Source: Planctomycetota bacterium (GTDB lineage: Bacteria > Planctomycetota > UBA1135 > UBA2386). From it: a stretch of 38,981 nt of DNA. This document shows, in pieces, positions 17,037-21,222 of the stretch. A program made the translations under genes and the position numbers. Position 1 is the first letter of the stretch; every line of letters starts with the position of its first letter. The notes under the pieces were generated by a model. The model saw only the letters and a program-made list of their open reading frames with translations. It was not told the origin of the DNA and searched no databases. The stretch lies in the NCBI GenBank assembly GCA_016794035.1, contig JAEUHS010000025.1, forward strand, positions 1 through 38,981, written 5' to 3'.

Positions 17037-19550
17037 ATGAGTTCCAAGCACCGCCACGGGCTGCCGAAGAAGCGCCCCGATCTCCCCGCCAAGGTCGACA
17101 TCGACGCCGATCTGCCCGAGTTGGAGCCGCTGGAAGAGGAGCTGCCGACGCTCGAGCCGATCGAGGAGCCGGCCGTCGACGACGGTCCGGTCCGCGTCGG
17201 CCTCGAGGAGGTCGAACCGGGCTTCCACGTCACGCTGACCGTCGAGGTGCCGGCGATGGACAAGGCCGCCGTGACCGAGGCCGTGTCGGCGCCGTTGCGT
17301 CGGGCCATGGACGCGGCGGGTCTGCGCCACAAGCGGGTGCTGGTGCGCTTCACCGGTGACGCGGTCGTGGGCAGTGCGACCAAGTCGCACGTGGCCGAGC
17401 TGCTCGAGGAGCGCAGGCCGCTGCTCGGGGTCGTGCGCCGCGGCTACGGCGACGAGACCGTGTGCGAGGGACGTCTGCCGACGGTCGACGTCGCGACGCG
17501 CACCGAGGCGGGTGTGACCCACGTCGAGATCGCGACCGGCCAGACCGAGACCGAAGACCTGTCGCAGGCCATGGCGCGGCATCTGCCGGCGCTGGCCGCG
17601 TCGGCGCGCGGGCGTCGGTTCGAAGTCACGTTCCAGGGCGCGGCCCCGGACGACCAGGTCTGCGACCAGATCGAAGCCGTGCTGCGTGAGGCGGGCGCGC
17701 TGCGGGTCGCGGTGGACGGGCGCACGCTGTTCGACCGGGAGCTGACGGACCGCGTCAAGGTGGAGGTCGCGGGGACCGACGCGACGGTCCGCATCGACGC
17801 GGCCGACGACGAGGCGGCGACGCTCGCGGCCATCACGATGGTGCTGCCCGATCACGCGGCGAAGTTCGCGCGCCGCTCGGTCGCCCTGCGTGGCAGCCAG
17901 CCGCTCGGCGCCGCGGTGGTCGAGGCCTGCGTCGCGCAGTGCCGCCGGGCCGGGGCCGAACAGGTCGTGCTGCACGGCGCCGGCGACGCGGAGATCGTCT
18001 GGCCGCCGCTGCTGGAGCGGGTCGTCGGCGACGAGACGACGCTGCGGGTGCAGGCCGGTCGCCGCTCGCGCGCCGCGCTGCTGGCGGCGTTCCGCCGTGA
18101 GGCCCCCGCGCACCTCGCGGCGACGAAGGGCGAGGCGGTCGTCGTCGACTGGCCGGTCGGTTTCGCGATCGACGCCGAGATCGAGGCGTTCTGCCGCGAC
18201 GAACTCGGTGGTCTGCTGCAGCCCAGGCAGCTGGCCTGCACGATCGGCGGCGAGCGCCGCGAGCCGATGCTGCCCGACCCGGCCGGCCTCGCCGTCGACG
18301 GCGACCGCTTCACGCTGCGCCTCGACACCGAGGCCGGCAAGCCGCTCGAACTGCAGCGCGCGGTCGATCGCCGGCTGGCATCGCTCGCGGGCAAGCTGCG
18401 TGGCAAGTCGGTGCGCGTGCAGGTGACCGGCTCGGCCCCGGTGTCGCGCACGCTGTTGCGTTCGTTGTGCTCGGCGATCGAGGCGGCCGGCGCGATGCGG
18501 CTCGAGGTCGAAGACCACGGCGCGGTCGACATGCTGCTGCCGCCGCTGCTGACGATCACTCGCACCGGTGACGAGATCCACATCGCCGCCGTGGCCGGCG
18601 GGCGCGACGAGACGCAGCAGGCGCAGGCGCTGCAGCGCGAACTCGACGCCGCGTCGTTGCCGGCCGGAGCGACCGTGGTCGTGTCCCCGTCGGCCACCGC
18701 CGACCGGATCGCGGCGGCCGCCGTCGCGCGCGGCGCGGCCAGCGTCGTGATCGATGGGCCGGAGCCGGTGCGCGTGCATCCGCCCCTGTTCGGCGTGCCC
18801 GAGAAGACCGGACTCAGTCGCCGCCTGCCGGTGCAGCCGTCGGCCGACGAGGCGATGGTCGCGCGTCAGCTCGATCGCGAACTGCCGGCCCTGCTGGCCG
18901 GCCTCGGTCCGGTGATGACCGCGACGATCACGGTCGCGTGGCCCGATGCGCAGCCGACGTCGCCGCCGGTCGTGCGTCTTTGCCAGGGACTGGTGGCGAA
19001 GAAGGCCGCCAAGGTGCTGCTCGACGCGGGCAGCGGCAGCCCGGTGCAGATGCACCCGCCGCTGCCGGGTGCCGCGCCGATCACCCCGGTCGCCGTGGCC
19101 GCACCCCCCGCCGCTGCTGCCGCACCGGCGCCGGTGGTGCCCGCCGGTGACGATCCGGCGGACGTGGCCGCCGAGTTGGACGCGCAGCCGAGGGTCACGA
19201 TCCTCGGTCAGAAGGACGTGGCCGAGCCGCCGCTGGTGATGGTCGGGGTCGAGGCCGGCACCGACGGCGCCGACCTGCGCCAGGTCGAGACCGAACTGCT
19301 CGAGATGCTGCCGCGCCTCGAAGGCCGGTGCGTGCTGGTGGTGCTGCGGCGCGGGACGACGGACGTGCCGGTGCGCCGCGAGGACGCGCTGGTGTCGACG
19401 TTGCGCCGTCTGCTGGTCGGCGCCGCGGCGGCGACGCTGGTGTTCCGCGGCCTCGATGCGCGGCAGCGGCCCTACTTCCAGGTGGCGGATTCGCGGGTGC
19501 CGAGCCTCGCCGTCGGCGCGGCCATCGCCGATCCGCGGCCGCGAACCTGA
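17037..19550 (+). CDS. Large protein of about eight degenerate tandem alpha/beta repeats, function unknown
   Basis: An 837-residue protein with no signal peptide or membrane segment, so probably cytoplasmic. A basic start (KHRHGLPKKRPD) and an acidic stretch (LPELEPLEEELPTLEP) precede the repeats. From about residue 55 a unit of roughly 95-100 residues recurs some eight times. Each unit has a helix, then a hydrophobic strand after Gly/Ala (GAEQVVLHG, GAMRLEVED, GAASVVIDG, KAAKVLLDAG), then a short conserved tail VxxxPPL (EIVWPPLLE, MLLPPLLTI, VRVHPPLFG, VQMHPPLPG). An Ala/Pro-rich linker separates the last unit. I do not recognise the family. It may be a scaffold or binding protein; the promoter and upstream terminators suggest its own transcription unit. 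Confidence 0.8.
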   Translation: MSSKHRHGLPKKRPDLPAKVDIDADLPELEPLEEELPTLEPIEEPAVDDGPVRVGLEEVEPGFHVTLTVEVPAMDKAAVTEAVSAPLRRAMDAAGLRHKRVLVRFTGDAVVGSATKSHVAELLEERRPLLGVVRRGYGDETVCEGRLPTVDVATRTEAGVTHVEIATGQTETEDLSQAMARHLPALAASARGRRFEVTFQGAAPDDQVCDQIEAVLREAGALRVAVDGRTLFDRELTDRVKVEVAGTDATVRIDAADDEAATLAAITMVLPDHAAKFARRSVALRGSQPLGAAVVEACVAQCRRAGAEQVVLHGAGDAEIVWPPLLERVVGDETTLRVQAGRRSRAALLAAFRREAPAHLAATKGEAVVVDWPVGFAIDAEIEAFCRDELGGLLQPRQLACTIGGERREPMLPDPAGLAVDGDRFTLRLDTEAGKPLELQRAVDRRLASLAGKLRGKSVRVQVTGSAPVSRTLLRSLCSAIEAAGAMRLEVEDHGAVDMLLPPLLTITRTGDEIHIAAVAGGRDETQQAQALQRELDAASLPAGATVVVSPSATADRIAAAAVARGAASVVIDGPEPVRVHPPLFGVPEKTGLSRRLPVQPSADEAMVARQLDRELPALLAGLGPVMTATITVAWPDAQPTSPPVVRLCQGLVAKKAAKVLLDAGSGSPVQMHPPLPGAAPITPVAVAAPPAAAAAPAPVVPAGDDPADVAAELDAQPRVTILGQKDVAEPPLVMVGVEAGTDGADLRQVETELLEMLPRLEGRCVLVVLRRGTTDVPVRREDALVSTLRRLLVGAAAATLVFRGLDARQRPYFQVADSRVPSLAVGAAIADPRPRT

Positions 19551-19591
19551 ATCTGCGGGCGGCGGCTGCGCGAATGCCCTCCCGACCGGCC

Positions 19592-19612
19592 CGTGGCGCG
19601 GCTCGCGCCGCG
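19592..19612 (+). terminator. Nine-pair hairpin after the repeat-protein gene
   Basis: Bases 19592-19600 pair with 19604-19612 (one G-T pair) around the loop GCT, 41 bases after the stop codon. No T-tract follows, so termination is plausible but unproven. Confidence 0.4.
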
Positions 19613-19617
19613 ACGGA

Positions 19618-19633
19618 CCGGTTCCGAGACCGG
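19618..19633 (+). repeat. Small hairpin overlapping the ribosome site of the HMA gene
   Basis: CCGGT at 19618-19622 pairs with ACCGG at 19629-19633 around a 6-base loop. The 3' arm overlaps the GGAG ribosome site (19632-19635) of the gene starting at 19643, so it could modulate its translation. Confidence 0.3.
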
Positions 19634-19642
19634 AGCAAGACC

Positions 19643-19963
19643 ATGAACCGCAGCCTCTTCACGGGCCTGAGCGCCCTGTTCCTCGTCGCCTGCAGCGGCA
19701 CCGGCAAGGTCACCCAAGCCGCGCCCGTCACCGCGGCGCAGACCGACGCCGAAGCGAAGTTCGAACTCGGCCGCCCGGTTTGAGGGGGTTGTGTCGCCGC
19801 CGTGCGCGGCGCCCTCGGCAACCTCGATGGCATCGGCCGCATCGACATCAAGGCCGGGGATCCGGACTTCACGGTCCACTACGACAGCACGAAGTTCGAC
19901 CCGCCCGCGATCGCCGCGCGGCTGGTCGCCGCCGGCGAGCCCGGCGCCAAGGTGAAGCCGTAG
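19643..19963 (+). CDS. HMA-domain lipoprotein with in-frame UGA at CxxC (candidate selenoprotein)
   Basis: Read through one TGA (19781-19783, codon 47), this is a 106-residue protein. ATG 19643 has a GGAG site 7 bases upstream. The signal peptide ends in a lipobox (SALFLVACSG), so it is probably a membrane-anchored periplasmic lipoprotein. After a linker comes a heavy-metal-associated domain: the UGA residue followed by GGCVAAVRGALGNLDGIG, then FTVHYDSTKFDP and IAARLVAAGE. This matches the CxxC...V..AL...GV pattern of MerP/CopZ-like domains, with Sec replacing the first Cys (UxxC). Coding character, GC3 and domain continuity persist to TAG 19961. The three codons right after TGA (GGG GGT TGT) are atypical of this genome, as expected if RNA structure constrains them. 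A nonsense mutation is the alternative. Confidence 0.75.
19781..19816 (+). other. In-frame UGA with candidate bacterial SECIS hairpin
   Basis: After TGA 19781-19783, bases 19784-19788 (GGGGG) pair with 19812-19816. After six unpaired bases (19789-19794, ending in T), 19795-19800 (CGCCGC) pair perfectly with 19806-19811 (GCGGCG). The 5-base apical loop 19801-19805 is CGTGC, containing GU, and lies 18-22 bases after the UGA. GU in the loop, an unpaired U below the upper stem and this spacing agree with the known bacterial SECIS pattern. Folding was done by eye. Confidence 0.6.
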
Positions 19964-20008
19964 CGGTGTGACGCCGCGGCGAACCCCTCGCTGCCGCTGC
20001 CGAGCCCG

Positions 20009-20398
20009 TCACGCCGGGCTGAAGCCCTCGGGCAGCACCCGGCGCGCCTTGCGCGTCAGCCTGGCGGCCGCCACGGCATCGGCGAGCACGGACTCGAGCA
20101 CGGCGATGTAGTCGAGGTAGCGCTTGCGCCCGGCGTCGGTCAGCCGGCACAGCGTCTGCGGCCGCCGCCCGCGGTAGCCCTTGTGGATGTCGACGAGCCC
20201 CGCCTCCTGCAGCACCGTCAGGTGCCGCGACAGGTTGCCGTCGGTGAGGTTGCACAGCCCCTTCAGATCGGTGAACAGGATGCCGTCGGCGCGCGCGGCC
20301 AGCGACGTCAGGATGCCGAGCCGGGCCTTCTCGTGCAGCAGGCGGTCGAGGCCCTCGTAGGCGTAGCGGCCGTCGTCGGGTTCCTTCTTGCCGGTCAC
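20009..20398 (-). CDS. Winged-helix transcriptional regulator
   Basis: A 129-residue protein from GTG 20398, overlapping the stop of the upstream gene (GTGA). It contains a winged helix: LHEKARLGILTSLAAR, DLKGLCNLTDGNLSRHLTVLQEAGLVDIHKG with the recognition helix NLSRHLTVLQ, and a wing RGRRPQTLCRLTDAGRKR. This matches small MarR/ArsR-like regulators that lack an effector domain. It is translationally coupled to the membrane protein gene before it, so the pair probably forms one module in which the regulator controls its own operon. The ligand is unknown. Confidence 0.85.
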   Translation of the reverse strand: MTGKKEPDDGRYAYEGLDRLLHEKARLGILTSLAARADGILFTDLKGLCNLTDGNLSRHLTVLQEAGLVDIHKGYRGRRPQTLCRLTDAGRKRYLDYIAVLESVLADAVAAARLTRKARRVLPEGFSPA

Positions 20399-21015
20399 GA
20401 CCGCACCTCGACGCCGCACACGGCGCGTTCGTTCTGCCACCACAGGATCGCCGCCAGCGCCGACTGGCCGACCGCGAACGGCAGCCCCATCGCCCAGGGC
20501 TCCAGCGCGCGCTCGCCGAACCACAGGCAGCACGTGCCGCTGGCGAGGTAGAGCACGCCGACCACGGCCGCCGGCCCCGGCAGCAGCCGGTGCGCCGCGA
20601 GGTTGCCGAGGCCGAACAGCAGCTGCCACAGCCCCGGCAGCACCCAGACGAGCTGCGGCAGCCGGTCGATCACGAACCAGGTCACGATCGCGCCGACCAG
20701 CAGGCTCGGTGCGAACTGCACCGCCGCGAGGCGCGCGTGCGCGGTGCCGAGCGCCGAGTCGCTCTGCTGCACGCGCCGCAGCACGACGATGCCGGCGGCC
20801 GTGCCGCTGACGACCGCGACGCCGCACCACAGCCACAGGTAGCGCCGCGTGTCGACCATCGGATCGCCGAGCCACAGCGACTGCGCGACCGCGGCGAACA
20901 CCGCGAGCAGGCCGGACAGCGCCACCGGGACCGCGCGCAGGCTGCGCAGCCGTTCGGTCGCGGCCAGCTGCGTGCGGATGGTCGAGATCTGGTCGATGGC
21001 GTCGCGAAGTTCCAT
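20395..21015 (-). CDS. Six-pass membrane protein paired with a winged-helix regulator
   Basis: A 206-residue protein from ATG 21015 (MELRDAIDQI), preferred over an upstream in-frame ATG at 21078 because a good promoter lies between them. After a short N-terminal amphipathic helix there are about six hydrophobic segments (for example VPVALSGLLAVFAAVAQSL, LLVGAIVTWFVIDRL, VVGVLYLASGTCCLWFG and a final LPFAVGQSALAAILWW). I do not recognise a named family. Coupled membrane-protein and wHTH genes of this type are common and probably sense envelope state or export something, but that is inference. Confidence 0.78.
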   Translation of the reverse strand: MELRDAIDQISTIRTQLAATERLRSLRAVPVALSGLLAVFAAVAQSLWLGDPMVDTRRYLWLWCGVAVVSGTAAGIVVLRRVQQSDSALGTAHARLAAVQFAPSLLVGAIVTWFVIDRLPQLVWVLPGLWQLLFGLGNLAAHRLLPGPAAVVGVLYLASGTCCLWFGERALEPWAMGLPFAVGQSALAAILWWQNERAVCGVEVRS

Positions 21016-21034
21016 GGCGGTGGCTTTGCGATCG

Positions 21035-21062
21035 AAAGTAGGCGCCGACAGGGAGTCGTCAA
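21035..21062 (-). promoter_or_regulatory. Sigma-70-type promoter of the membrane-protein/regulator operon
   Basis: On the minus strand TTGACG (21062-21057) and TACTTT (21040-21035) are separated by 16 bases. Transcription would begin about 13 bases before ATG 21015. The TTGACG box is a 5/6 match to the -35 consensus. Confidence 0.48.
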
Positions 21063-21222
21063 GCGCCGACGGCAACATCGTCGGTGCCGGCGGCGCGGAC
21101 CGGTGGCGCGGTGCGTCCGGATGCCGCGTGGGGCTGCCGCAGGGTGCGCCGCGACCGGCTTACCCGGCGCTTACGCGCGAGATGCCGCCTCCGAGGTCTG
21201 ATGTGTCGACCAGTGAGGTGAC

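What the first reader, a model, noticed from the sequence alone, without database searches (positions are those of the whole stretch)
19643..19963. HMA-domain lipoprotein with UGA at the first Cys of CxxC: candidate UxxC selenoprotein
Seen: the frame from ATG 19643 meets TGA at 19781 and then continues in the same frame through a complete heavy-metal-associated domain to TAG 19961. The residue at TGA is followed by GGC, so it sits where HMA domains have the first Cys of CxxC. GC3 coding bias continues after the TGA. The three codons directly after it (GGG GGT TGT) break that bias, as expected if they must also fold. A hairpin with a GU-containing apical loop 18-22 bases after TGA matches the bacterial SECIS pattern. 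Established: Sec often replaces Cys in CxxC-type redox motifs. Inference: a Sec-dependent metal- or redox-binding periplasmic lipoprotein.
Basis: partly seen in the sequence, partly recalled or inferred. Interest (0 to 1): 0.95.

Follow-up and report, generated by a model that had tools for sequence, protein, structure and literature searches.

The report
Hidden selenium-containing metal-binding lipoprotein
A bacterial gene interrupted by a stop codon is very likely read straight through it with the rare amino acid selenocysteine, giving a protein predicted to be membrane-anchored and to bind soft metals; the same stop codon sits at the same motif in related genes of 22 other genomes of its order, with a matching RNA hairpin behind nearly all of them, and a database search found the interrupted genes only as pieces from after the stop.

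Summary
In detail: ATG 19643, in-frame TGA 19781-19783, TAG 19961, with an HMA domain continuing past the TGA. So does the interpretation. In an order-wide search (154 genomes) the 32 strongest places, in 26 genomes, comprise 29 genes with TGA at exactly this codon and 3 with Cys. A 6-bp hairpin from the 12th base after the TGA is kept by covarying, partly synonymous changes: 93.9% of cells pair in 30 sequences (0 of 500 shuffles as high), and 0 of 5000 synonymous-codon shuffles reach the observed pairing. The three close Cys relatives keep 0-3 of 6 pairs. The genome has selA, selB, selD (itself with an in-frame TGA) and tRNA-Sec(UCA). AlphaFold gives a confident HMA fold with residues 47/50 at the metal site, behind a lipobox. 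A profile search of 5.8 billion proteins returned 17 fragments of 52-59 residues and 11 Cys HMA proteins, no full-length interrupted member. HMA selenoproteins are a known kind (NCBIfam NF041115, UxxU), but this UxxC lipoprotein is far below every NCBIfam cut-off: a new variant of a known kind. Sec insertion is close to certain in silico; soft-metal binding is inferred, untested.

The parts
19643..19963 (+). HMA-domain lipoprotein gene, 106 codons with UGA read as Sec at codon 47, stop TAG 19961-19963
19643..19693 (+). predicted lipoprotein signal peptide ending in lipobox LVAC; Cys17 invariant in 24 of 24 aligned rows
   Evidence: signal type inferred from the motif, no signal-peptide program run
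19781..19783 (+). in-frame UGA, predicted Sec47, first position of UxxC
19790..19792 (+). TGT, Cys50, second residue of UxxC
19795..19811 (+). predicted bacterial SECIS hairpin: 6-bp stem 19795-19800 with 19806-19811, loop CGUGC 19801-19805
19802..19804 (+). GTG in the hairpin loop, where a near-identical 53-residue database fragment (P0013) begins
19748..19960 (+). HMA (ferredoxin-like beta-alpha-beta-beta-alpha) domain, residues 36-106, pLDDT about 95 (modelled with C for U)
17037..19550 (+). upstream neighbour, 837 aa, no Pfam family, same strand; beside the gene in 7 of 14 regions of family f1 compared
20009..20401 (-). convergent neighbour, winged-helix regulator (HTH_34; start chosen by eye), same 7 of 14 f1 regions
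20395..21078 (-). neighbour, 227 aa, no Pfam family, membrane-like by its sequence, same 7 of 14 f1 regions

Best explanation
Window 19643-19963 is a 106-codon gene whose in-frame UGA at codon 47 is very likely read as selenocysteine, directed by a predicted SECIS hairpin just downstream, to give a predicted lipoprotein whose UxxC HMA domain would bind a soft metal ion. Proposed working, step by step. (1) Shown in sequence: UGA, covarying hairpin with loop CGUGC, Sec machinery genes in the same genome. (2) Inferred: SelB with Sec-tRNA(UCA) binds the hairpin and decodes the UGA. (3) Predicted: the product is exported, lipidated at Cys17 and tethered to a membrane. (4) Inferred: the Sec47 selenolate and Cys50 thiolate at the start of helix 1 hold a soft ion (Cu(I), Hg(II), Ag(I) or Cd(II)) as the CxxC of MerP or CopZ does, for sequestration or hand-over. 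Confidence is about 0.95 for steps 1-2 and about 0.6 for step 4.
For: TGA at the same codon in 29 of the 32 strongest order-level places, Cys in the other 3. Cys orthologues in G003 and G033 lie in the same gene neighbourhood as Sec forms in G000, G008, G019, G026, G028. Hairpin: 123 of 132 Watson-Crick cells in 22 sequences against 96.6 (sd 3.46, max 109 of 5000) when synonymous codons are shuffled within columns; six of eight sequences not used to define it have all 6 pairs; on all 30, 93.9% of cells paired, 24 cells changed on both sides against 5.7, covariation score 0.457 against 0.230, each 0 of 500; L035 and L174 rebuild a stem around the same CGUGC loop four bases further on. The three close Cys relatives have 1, 0 and 3 of 6 pairs. 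The window element meets the published bSECIS limits: loop 5, stem 6, G then U in the loop, spacing 17, -10.3 kcal/mol (limits from PMC13188914, passages). Machinery: selB, selA, selD over cut-offs, tRNA-SeC anticodon TCA; SelD carries its own TGA at GSGU. Fold: pLDDT about 95, nearest solved structures MNK1, MerP 1osd, CopP, CopZ.
Against: No experiment. Single-sequence folding energy is ordinary (z -1.16). Two of the five covariation measures are not decisive: pairs changed on both sides 13 of 500 shuffles as high, further pair types 200 of 500; shuffles do not remove relatedness. Of three distant Cys HMA loci two keep 1 of 6 pairs but one, L038, has 5 of 6. Nine of 30 elements miss a published bSECIS limit: eight by 0.1-0.7 kcal/mol, one (L113, a second copy) has no qualifying hairpin; no random control was run for that test. 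Rfam SECIS_1 found nothing in the genome, but it also rang in no control. Most relatives have Sec machinery (over cut-off of 101: tRNA-Sec 92, selA 93, selB 93), so it does not discriminate carriers. pN/pS over six members is about 0.6 on both sides of the TGA, only modest constraint. None of seven neighbouring frames scanned matched a metal family; three had no family. Neighbours elsewhere vary. The residues before the Sec are not the usual HMA GMT (recalled).
Confidence: 0.85

Rival explanations
1. Sec is inserted as proposed, but the UxxC site works as a selenol-thiol redox centre (reductase, or repair of oxidised periplasmic thiols) rather than as a metal ligand.
For: UxxC is described as a redox-related motif (PMC13188914, passages). 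Some phylum relatives have UxxxC or UxxxU spacing, which is not the standard HMA metal pair. In G049 the gene follows nqr-type genes and in G061 an apbE gene.
Against: The fold is HMA, not thioredoxin; the solved relatives found by sequence are mostly copper, mercury or zinc carriers. In G001 the tandem pair lies beside a heavy-metal P-type ATPase with its own HMA domain.
Confidence: 0.3
2. The UGA is a true stop and the downstream piece is a separate small gene starting at the GTG 19802, as databases record it.
For: 17 of 28 database matches are 52-59 residues long and begin after the UGA position, 14 of them at the position of this GTG.
Against: The piece lacks the first strand and both ligands of HMA; the upstream half (lipobox, strand 1) is conserved in frame; Cys orthologues are one uninterrupted frame in the same place; the GTG lies in the hairpin loop.
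Confidence: 0.02
3. UGA is read as another residue (for example Cys) by a suppressor tRNA.
For: Cys occurs at the position in three close relatives.
Against: selA, selB, selD and tRNA-Sec(UCA) are in the genome; UGA is the stop of the neighbouring gene 17037-19550 and of several members.
Confidence: 0.03
4. Sequencing error or pseudogene.
For: The record is from a draft genome in 133 contigs.
Against: Same TGA in 23 genomes with a covarying hairpin.
Confidence: 0.01

Closest known systems
NCBIfam NF041115 UxxU_metal_bind, metal-binding (seleno)protein
   Same: HMA-type small protein with Sec at the metal-site cysteines; 23 of 24 aligned members match at E 1e-3 or better
   Different: one Sec (UxxC) instead of two; lipobox; 20.4 bits against a cut-off of 95
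MerP (TIGR02052; solved 1osd, 1afi)
   Same: exported single HMA domain with a two-residue metal site; 1osd is the second-best Foldseek match
   Different: predicted Sec for Cys; predicted lipoprotein; no mer family among seven neighbouring frames scanned; 22.3 bits against 92.55
CopZ / CopP copper chaperones
   Same: HMA fold and motif position
   Different: predicted to be exported and lipid-anchored, predicted Sec; the genome has a separate Cys CopZ-like gene beside an HMA-bearing frame on contig C30
NF045683 MerT/CopZ fusion-like heavy metal transport selenoprotein
   Same: selenoprotein with a CopZ-like part (from the NCBIfam name only)
   Different: a longer fusion (235 positions); 15.3 bits against 375
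GOS 'Mercuric transport protein MerP' (PMC2398784, one table row seen)
   Same: a MerP-named family listed among marine selenoproteins in 2008 (row numbers 2, 1, 0; column heads not seen)
   Different: the row gives no motif and no domain; sequences were not compared here

Membership tests
Selenoproteins (bacterial) | in-frame UGA aligned with Cys or Sec in homologues | tested here: met
   29 TGA and 3 Cys of the 32 strongest order-level places
Selenoproteins (bacterial) | SECIS hairpin within 16-37 nt of UGA, G in the first two loop positions, -7.5 kcal/mol or below | tested here: met
   window meets all limits; of 30 sequences 21 meet all, 8 miss only the energy limit, 1 has none; covariation
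Selenoproteins (bacterial) | selA, selB, selD, tRNA-Sec in the genome | tested here: met
Selenoproteins (bacterial) | Se found in the protein | not testable with these tools
   needs 75Se labelling or mass spectrometry
Pfam HMA PF00403 | profile score over the gathering cut-off | tested here: met
   25.3 against 24.8 with C for U
Pfam HMA PF00403 | ferredoxin-like fold with the metal pair before helix 1 | tested here: met
   E36-41 H48-58 E64-68 E75-80 H87-96; Foldseek
NCBIfam NF041115 UxxU_metal_bind | score over 95 bits | tested here: not met
   20.4 bits
NCBIfam NF041115 UxxU_metal_bind | two Sec, UxxU (from the family name) | tested here: not met
   UGGC
MerP (TIGR02052) | score over 92.55 bits; mer operon | tested here: not met
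   22.3 bits; no mer family among seven neighbouring frames scanned
Bacterial lipoproteins | signal peptide with lipobox and invariant Cys | tested here: met
   LVAC, Cys17 invariant; permissive lipobox pattern in 24 of 24 rows; one row (L018) has no start codon in the frame used; no signal-peptide program was run
Soft-metal carriers | metal bound by the two-residue site | not testable with these tools
   needs purified protein

The most novel reading that the evidence does not exclude
Planctomycetota have built a large, mostly unannotated set of exported HMA-domain selenoproteins in which selenolate replaces thiolate as the soft-metal ligand, with one Sec or two and with the pair spaced by two or three residues (UxxC, UxxxC, UxxU, UxxxU): a selenium-based periplasmic metal buffer or relay. 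Sec as a metal ligand has been suggested for other selenoproteins (SaoB, SaoC; PMC13188914, passage), but here it would sit in the best-known metal-binding fold.
Probability: 0.45. Interest if true: 0.8.

Novelty: new variant of a known kind. Interest (0 to 1): 0.62.

Why it matters
Most selenoproteins are thought to serve redox chemistry (PMC13188914, passage). A Sec at the metal site of a well-studied metal-binding fold would make selenium as a natural metal ligand, so far a suggestion, directly testable. It also shows how a selenoprotein family stays hidden: the database fragments start after the UGA, 14 of 17 at the position of a GTG that lies inside the SECIS loop. The hairpin is under clear selection, so the family is a good natural set for learning the SECIS rules of Planctomycetota.

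Tried and rejected
Rfam RF00031 (SECIS_1) in the own genome: nothing, but no control rang either, so uninformative. Rfam scan of 19400-20200: five sub-threshold matches, none a SECIS. The search for homologous proteins with the single full-length protein: no hit; with the alignment: 28 hits, 17 of them fragments of 52-59 residues and 11 longer or other Cys HMA proteins. That an upstream TGA exists was seen only for the fragments that match my own loci (P0002, P0013, P0016, P0021); for the rest it is inferred. Genome-contig scan: one relative, CANEYR010000146.1, Planctomycetota MAG. Single-sequence folding energy: not significant. Machinery as a discriminator: not useful. Gene neighbourhood as a guide to function: shared by 7 of 14 f1 regions but with partners of unknown role; a P-type ATPase seen in G001 only; nqr-type or apbE genes in the two f6 genomes G049 and G061: inconclusive. 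Direction Cys to Sec or Sec to Cys: the tree needs at least 2 changes and the root is unsure.

Rows dropped: the alignment A1 (24 rows) leaves out L030 (Sec form, start not found automatically) and L029, L032, L033, L034, L038 (distant Cys HMA proteins), of 30 loci read. The tree has those 24 rows plus 5 of the 8 later ones. The phylum search scored at most 12 candidates a genome and the order search at most 31, so absence there is weak. Machinery was not looked up for the four carriers found only (G465, G484, G490, G491).

Literature: seven searches. Passages were seen in PMC13188914, PMC9312934, PMC2398784, PMC12013277, PMC4807772 and PMC1794560; PMC1088965 gave no passage for the terms. No UxxC HMA lipoprotein was seen in the table rows shown of PMC13188914; the table was not read whole and supplements were not available.

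Full report
What is there. The frame ATG 19643 - TGA 19781 - TAG 19961 is as described. With Sec at codon 47 it reads MNRSLFTGLSALFLVACSG...GRPVUGGCVAAVRGAL...AKVKP. Pfam HMA matches just over its cut-off (25.3 against 24.8, C for U). GC3 is 0.91 before and 0.93 after the TGA.

Relatives. A search of 101 related genomes with stops read through found 26 with a match. Of 30 loci read, 22 (in 19 genomes) carry TGA at exactly the first motif position; of the other 8, three close relatives have Cys there (G033 CGNC, G003 CQGC, G012 CEMC) and five are distant Cys HMA proteins. An order-wide profile search of 154 genomes listed 61 places; the 32 with E below 1e-15 (my cut) lie in 26 genomes, 29 with one TGA and 3 with none. 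The 29 were checked at the motif. Of 14 family-f1 regions compared, seven share one neighbourhood, with Sec forms in G000, G008, G019, G026, G028 and Cys forms in G003, G033: an 837-aa protein of unknown family upstream, then a convergent HTH_34 regulator and a membrane-like protein; a VIT/VWA protein follows in six of the seven. The closest protein relatives (G001, G027, G032) lie elsewhere, in tandem with a second copy. On the tree the Cys forms need at least two changes; G003 and G033 nest among Sec forms.

The hairpin. In 22 sequences a 6-bp stem follows the TGA; 123 of 132 cells are Watson-Crick. Shuffling synonymous codons within columns gives 96.6 (sd 3.46, maximum 109 of 5000 trials), drawing codons from the family's usage gives 74.4 (maximum 91 of 5000). 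In eight sequences not used to define it, six have all 6 pairs, one has 4 plus a G-U, one has 1. On all 30, 93.9% of cells pair, 24 cells are changed on both sides against 5.7 and the covariation score is 0.457 against 0.230, each 0 of 500 shuffles; five of six pairs show changes on both sides (13 of 500 as high), further pair types are not unusual (200 of 500); sliding the partner by 1-3 columns drops pairing to 16-51%. L035 and L174, which break the register, form other stems around the same CGUGC loop four bases further on. The shuffles do not remove relatedness. The three close Cys relatives keep 1, 0 and 3 of 6 pairs; of three distant Cys loci two keep 1 and one (L038) has 5. The window element satisfies the published bSECIS limits (PMC13188914, passages): loop 5 nt, stem 6 bp, G then U in the loop, spacing 17 nt, -10.3 kcal/mol. 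21 of 30 satisfy all limits; eight miss only the energy limit and one second copy has no qualifying hairpin; no random control was run for this test.

The machinery. The own genome (94% complete) has selB (321 bits, cut-off 242), selA (473, cut-off 268), selD (360, cut-off 125, with an in-frame TGA at GSGU) and tRNA-SeC with anticodon TCA. The 19 carriers all have selA and over-cut-off tRNA-Sec matches; 18 of 19 have selB at E 1e-60, G061 (66% complete) being the exception. Because most of the 101 relatives have these genes (tRNA-Sec 92, selA 93, selB 93 over cut-off), this is necessary, not discriminating, evidence.

Why it was missed. The full-length protein found no database relative (the search needs shared five-residue words). 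A profile search finds 28 proteins: 17 are 52-59-residue pieces that begin after the UGA position, 14 of them at the position of the GTG of the hairpin loop, and 11 are other HMA proteins with Cys; one piece near-identical to the window (P0013) starts at exactly that GTG. One piece is named 'heavy-metal-associated domain-containing protein', one 'copper chaperone CopZ', one 'hypothetical protein'.

Fold and likely work. AlphaFold (C for U) gives beta-alpha-beta-beta-alpha at pLDDT about 95 for residues 36-106 with residues 47 and 50 at the start of helix 1. The nearest solved structures are copper and mercury carriers (MNK1, MerP, CopP, CopZ). Cys17 is invariant in 24 rows, and a permissive lipobox pattern is found in all 24. 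I therefore propose a membrane-tethered soft-metal binder with a selenolate-thiolate pair; metal identity and partner are unknown. The P-type ATPase beside the tandem pair in the same-genus genome G001 fits; the nqr-type and apbE neighbours in G049 and G061 fit a redox or maturation role at least as well. The own genome also has a Cys CopZ-like gene next to an HMA-bearing 799-residue frame on contig C30, so the Sec protein is an addition to, not a replacement of, the Cys chaperone.

Known or new. HMA-type selenoproteins are known: NF041115 (UxxU) and, by name, MerT_CopZ_Se in NCBIfam, a MerP row in the GOS survey (PMC2398784), an ATPase with UxxC in the 2026 review table (PMC13188914). The window protein is far below the cut-offs of all nine NCBIfam models it touches, and no UxxC HMA lipoprotein appeared in the table rows seen. 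Across the phylum I read 22 further TGA-bearing HMA loci; 17 have TGA at the motif: UxxC 6, UxxxC 7, UxxxU 3, UxxU 1; in 5 the TGA lies upstream. Ten of these 17 were scanned against NCBIfam and none passes any cut-off. The family is therefore one branch of a wider, mostly unannotated set. Verdict: real, a new variant of a known kind; the chemistry is the open question.

Noticed in passing
L138, L141, L142, L143, L152, L098, L100 (UxxxC); L137, L140, L145 (UxxxU); L139 (UxxU): Other Planctomycetota HMA proteins have TGA at the first motif Cys but a three-residue spacing, or a second TGA at the second Cys; three-residue spacing is not the standard HMA metal pair.
   Followed up: partly
L110 (G001), L109 (G027), L111 (G032), L113 (G026): A second, shorter HMA lipoprotein with its own TGA follows directly in tandem in four genomes; none was found beside the window gene.
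   Followed up: partly
L110:7883-10174: In the same-genus genome G001 the tandem pair faces a heavy-metal P-type ATPase with an N-terminal HMA domain.
   Followed up: partly
L120 (G049), L121 (G061): In two genomes of family f6 the gene follows Na+-NQR-type genes (nqrE, nqrF-like, nqrM just over its cut-off, in G049) or apbE (G061).
   Followed up: partly
17 of the 28 proteins: Database fragments of the family start after the UGA, 14 of 17 at the position of the GTG inside the SECIS loop: a gene-calling artefact that may hide other selenoproteins.
   Followed up: partly
L076 (G000:C119:4064-4981): SelD of this genome has an in-frame TGA at GSGU, so is itself a likely selenoprotein, next to selA.
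   Followed up: yes
L002 (G000:C44:27219-28388): An EF-Tu-like protein whose first GTP-binding motif reads GHVAHGKT where GHVDHGKT is usual (recalled); function not examined.
   Followed up: no
window 17037-19550: An 837-aa protein with no Pfam family, upstream of the HMA gene in 7 of 14 f1 regions; seems repetitive by eye.
   Followed up: no
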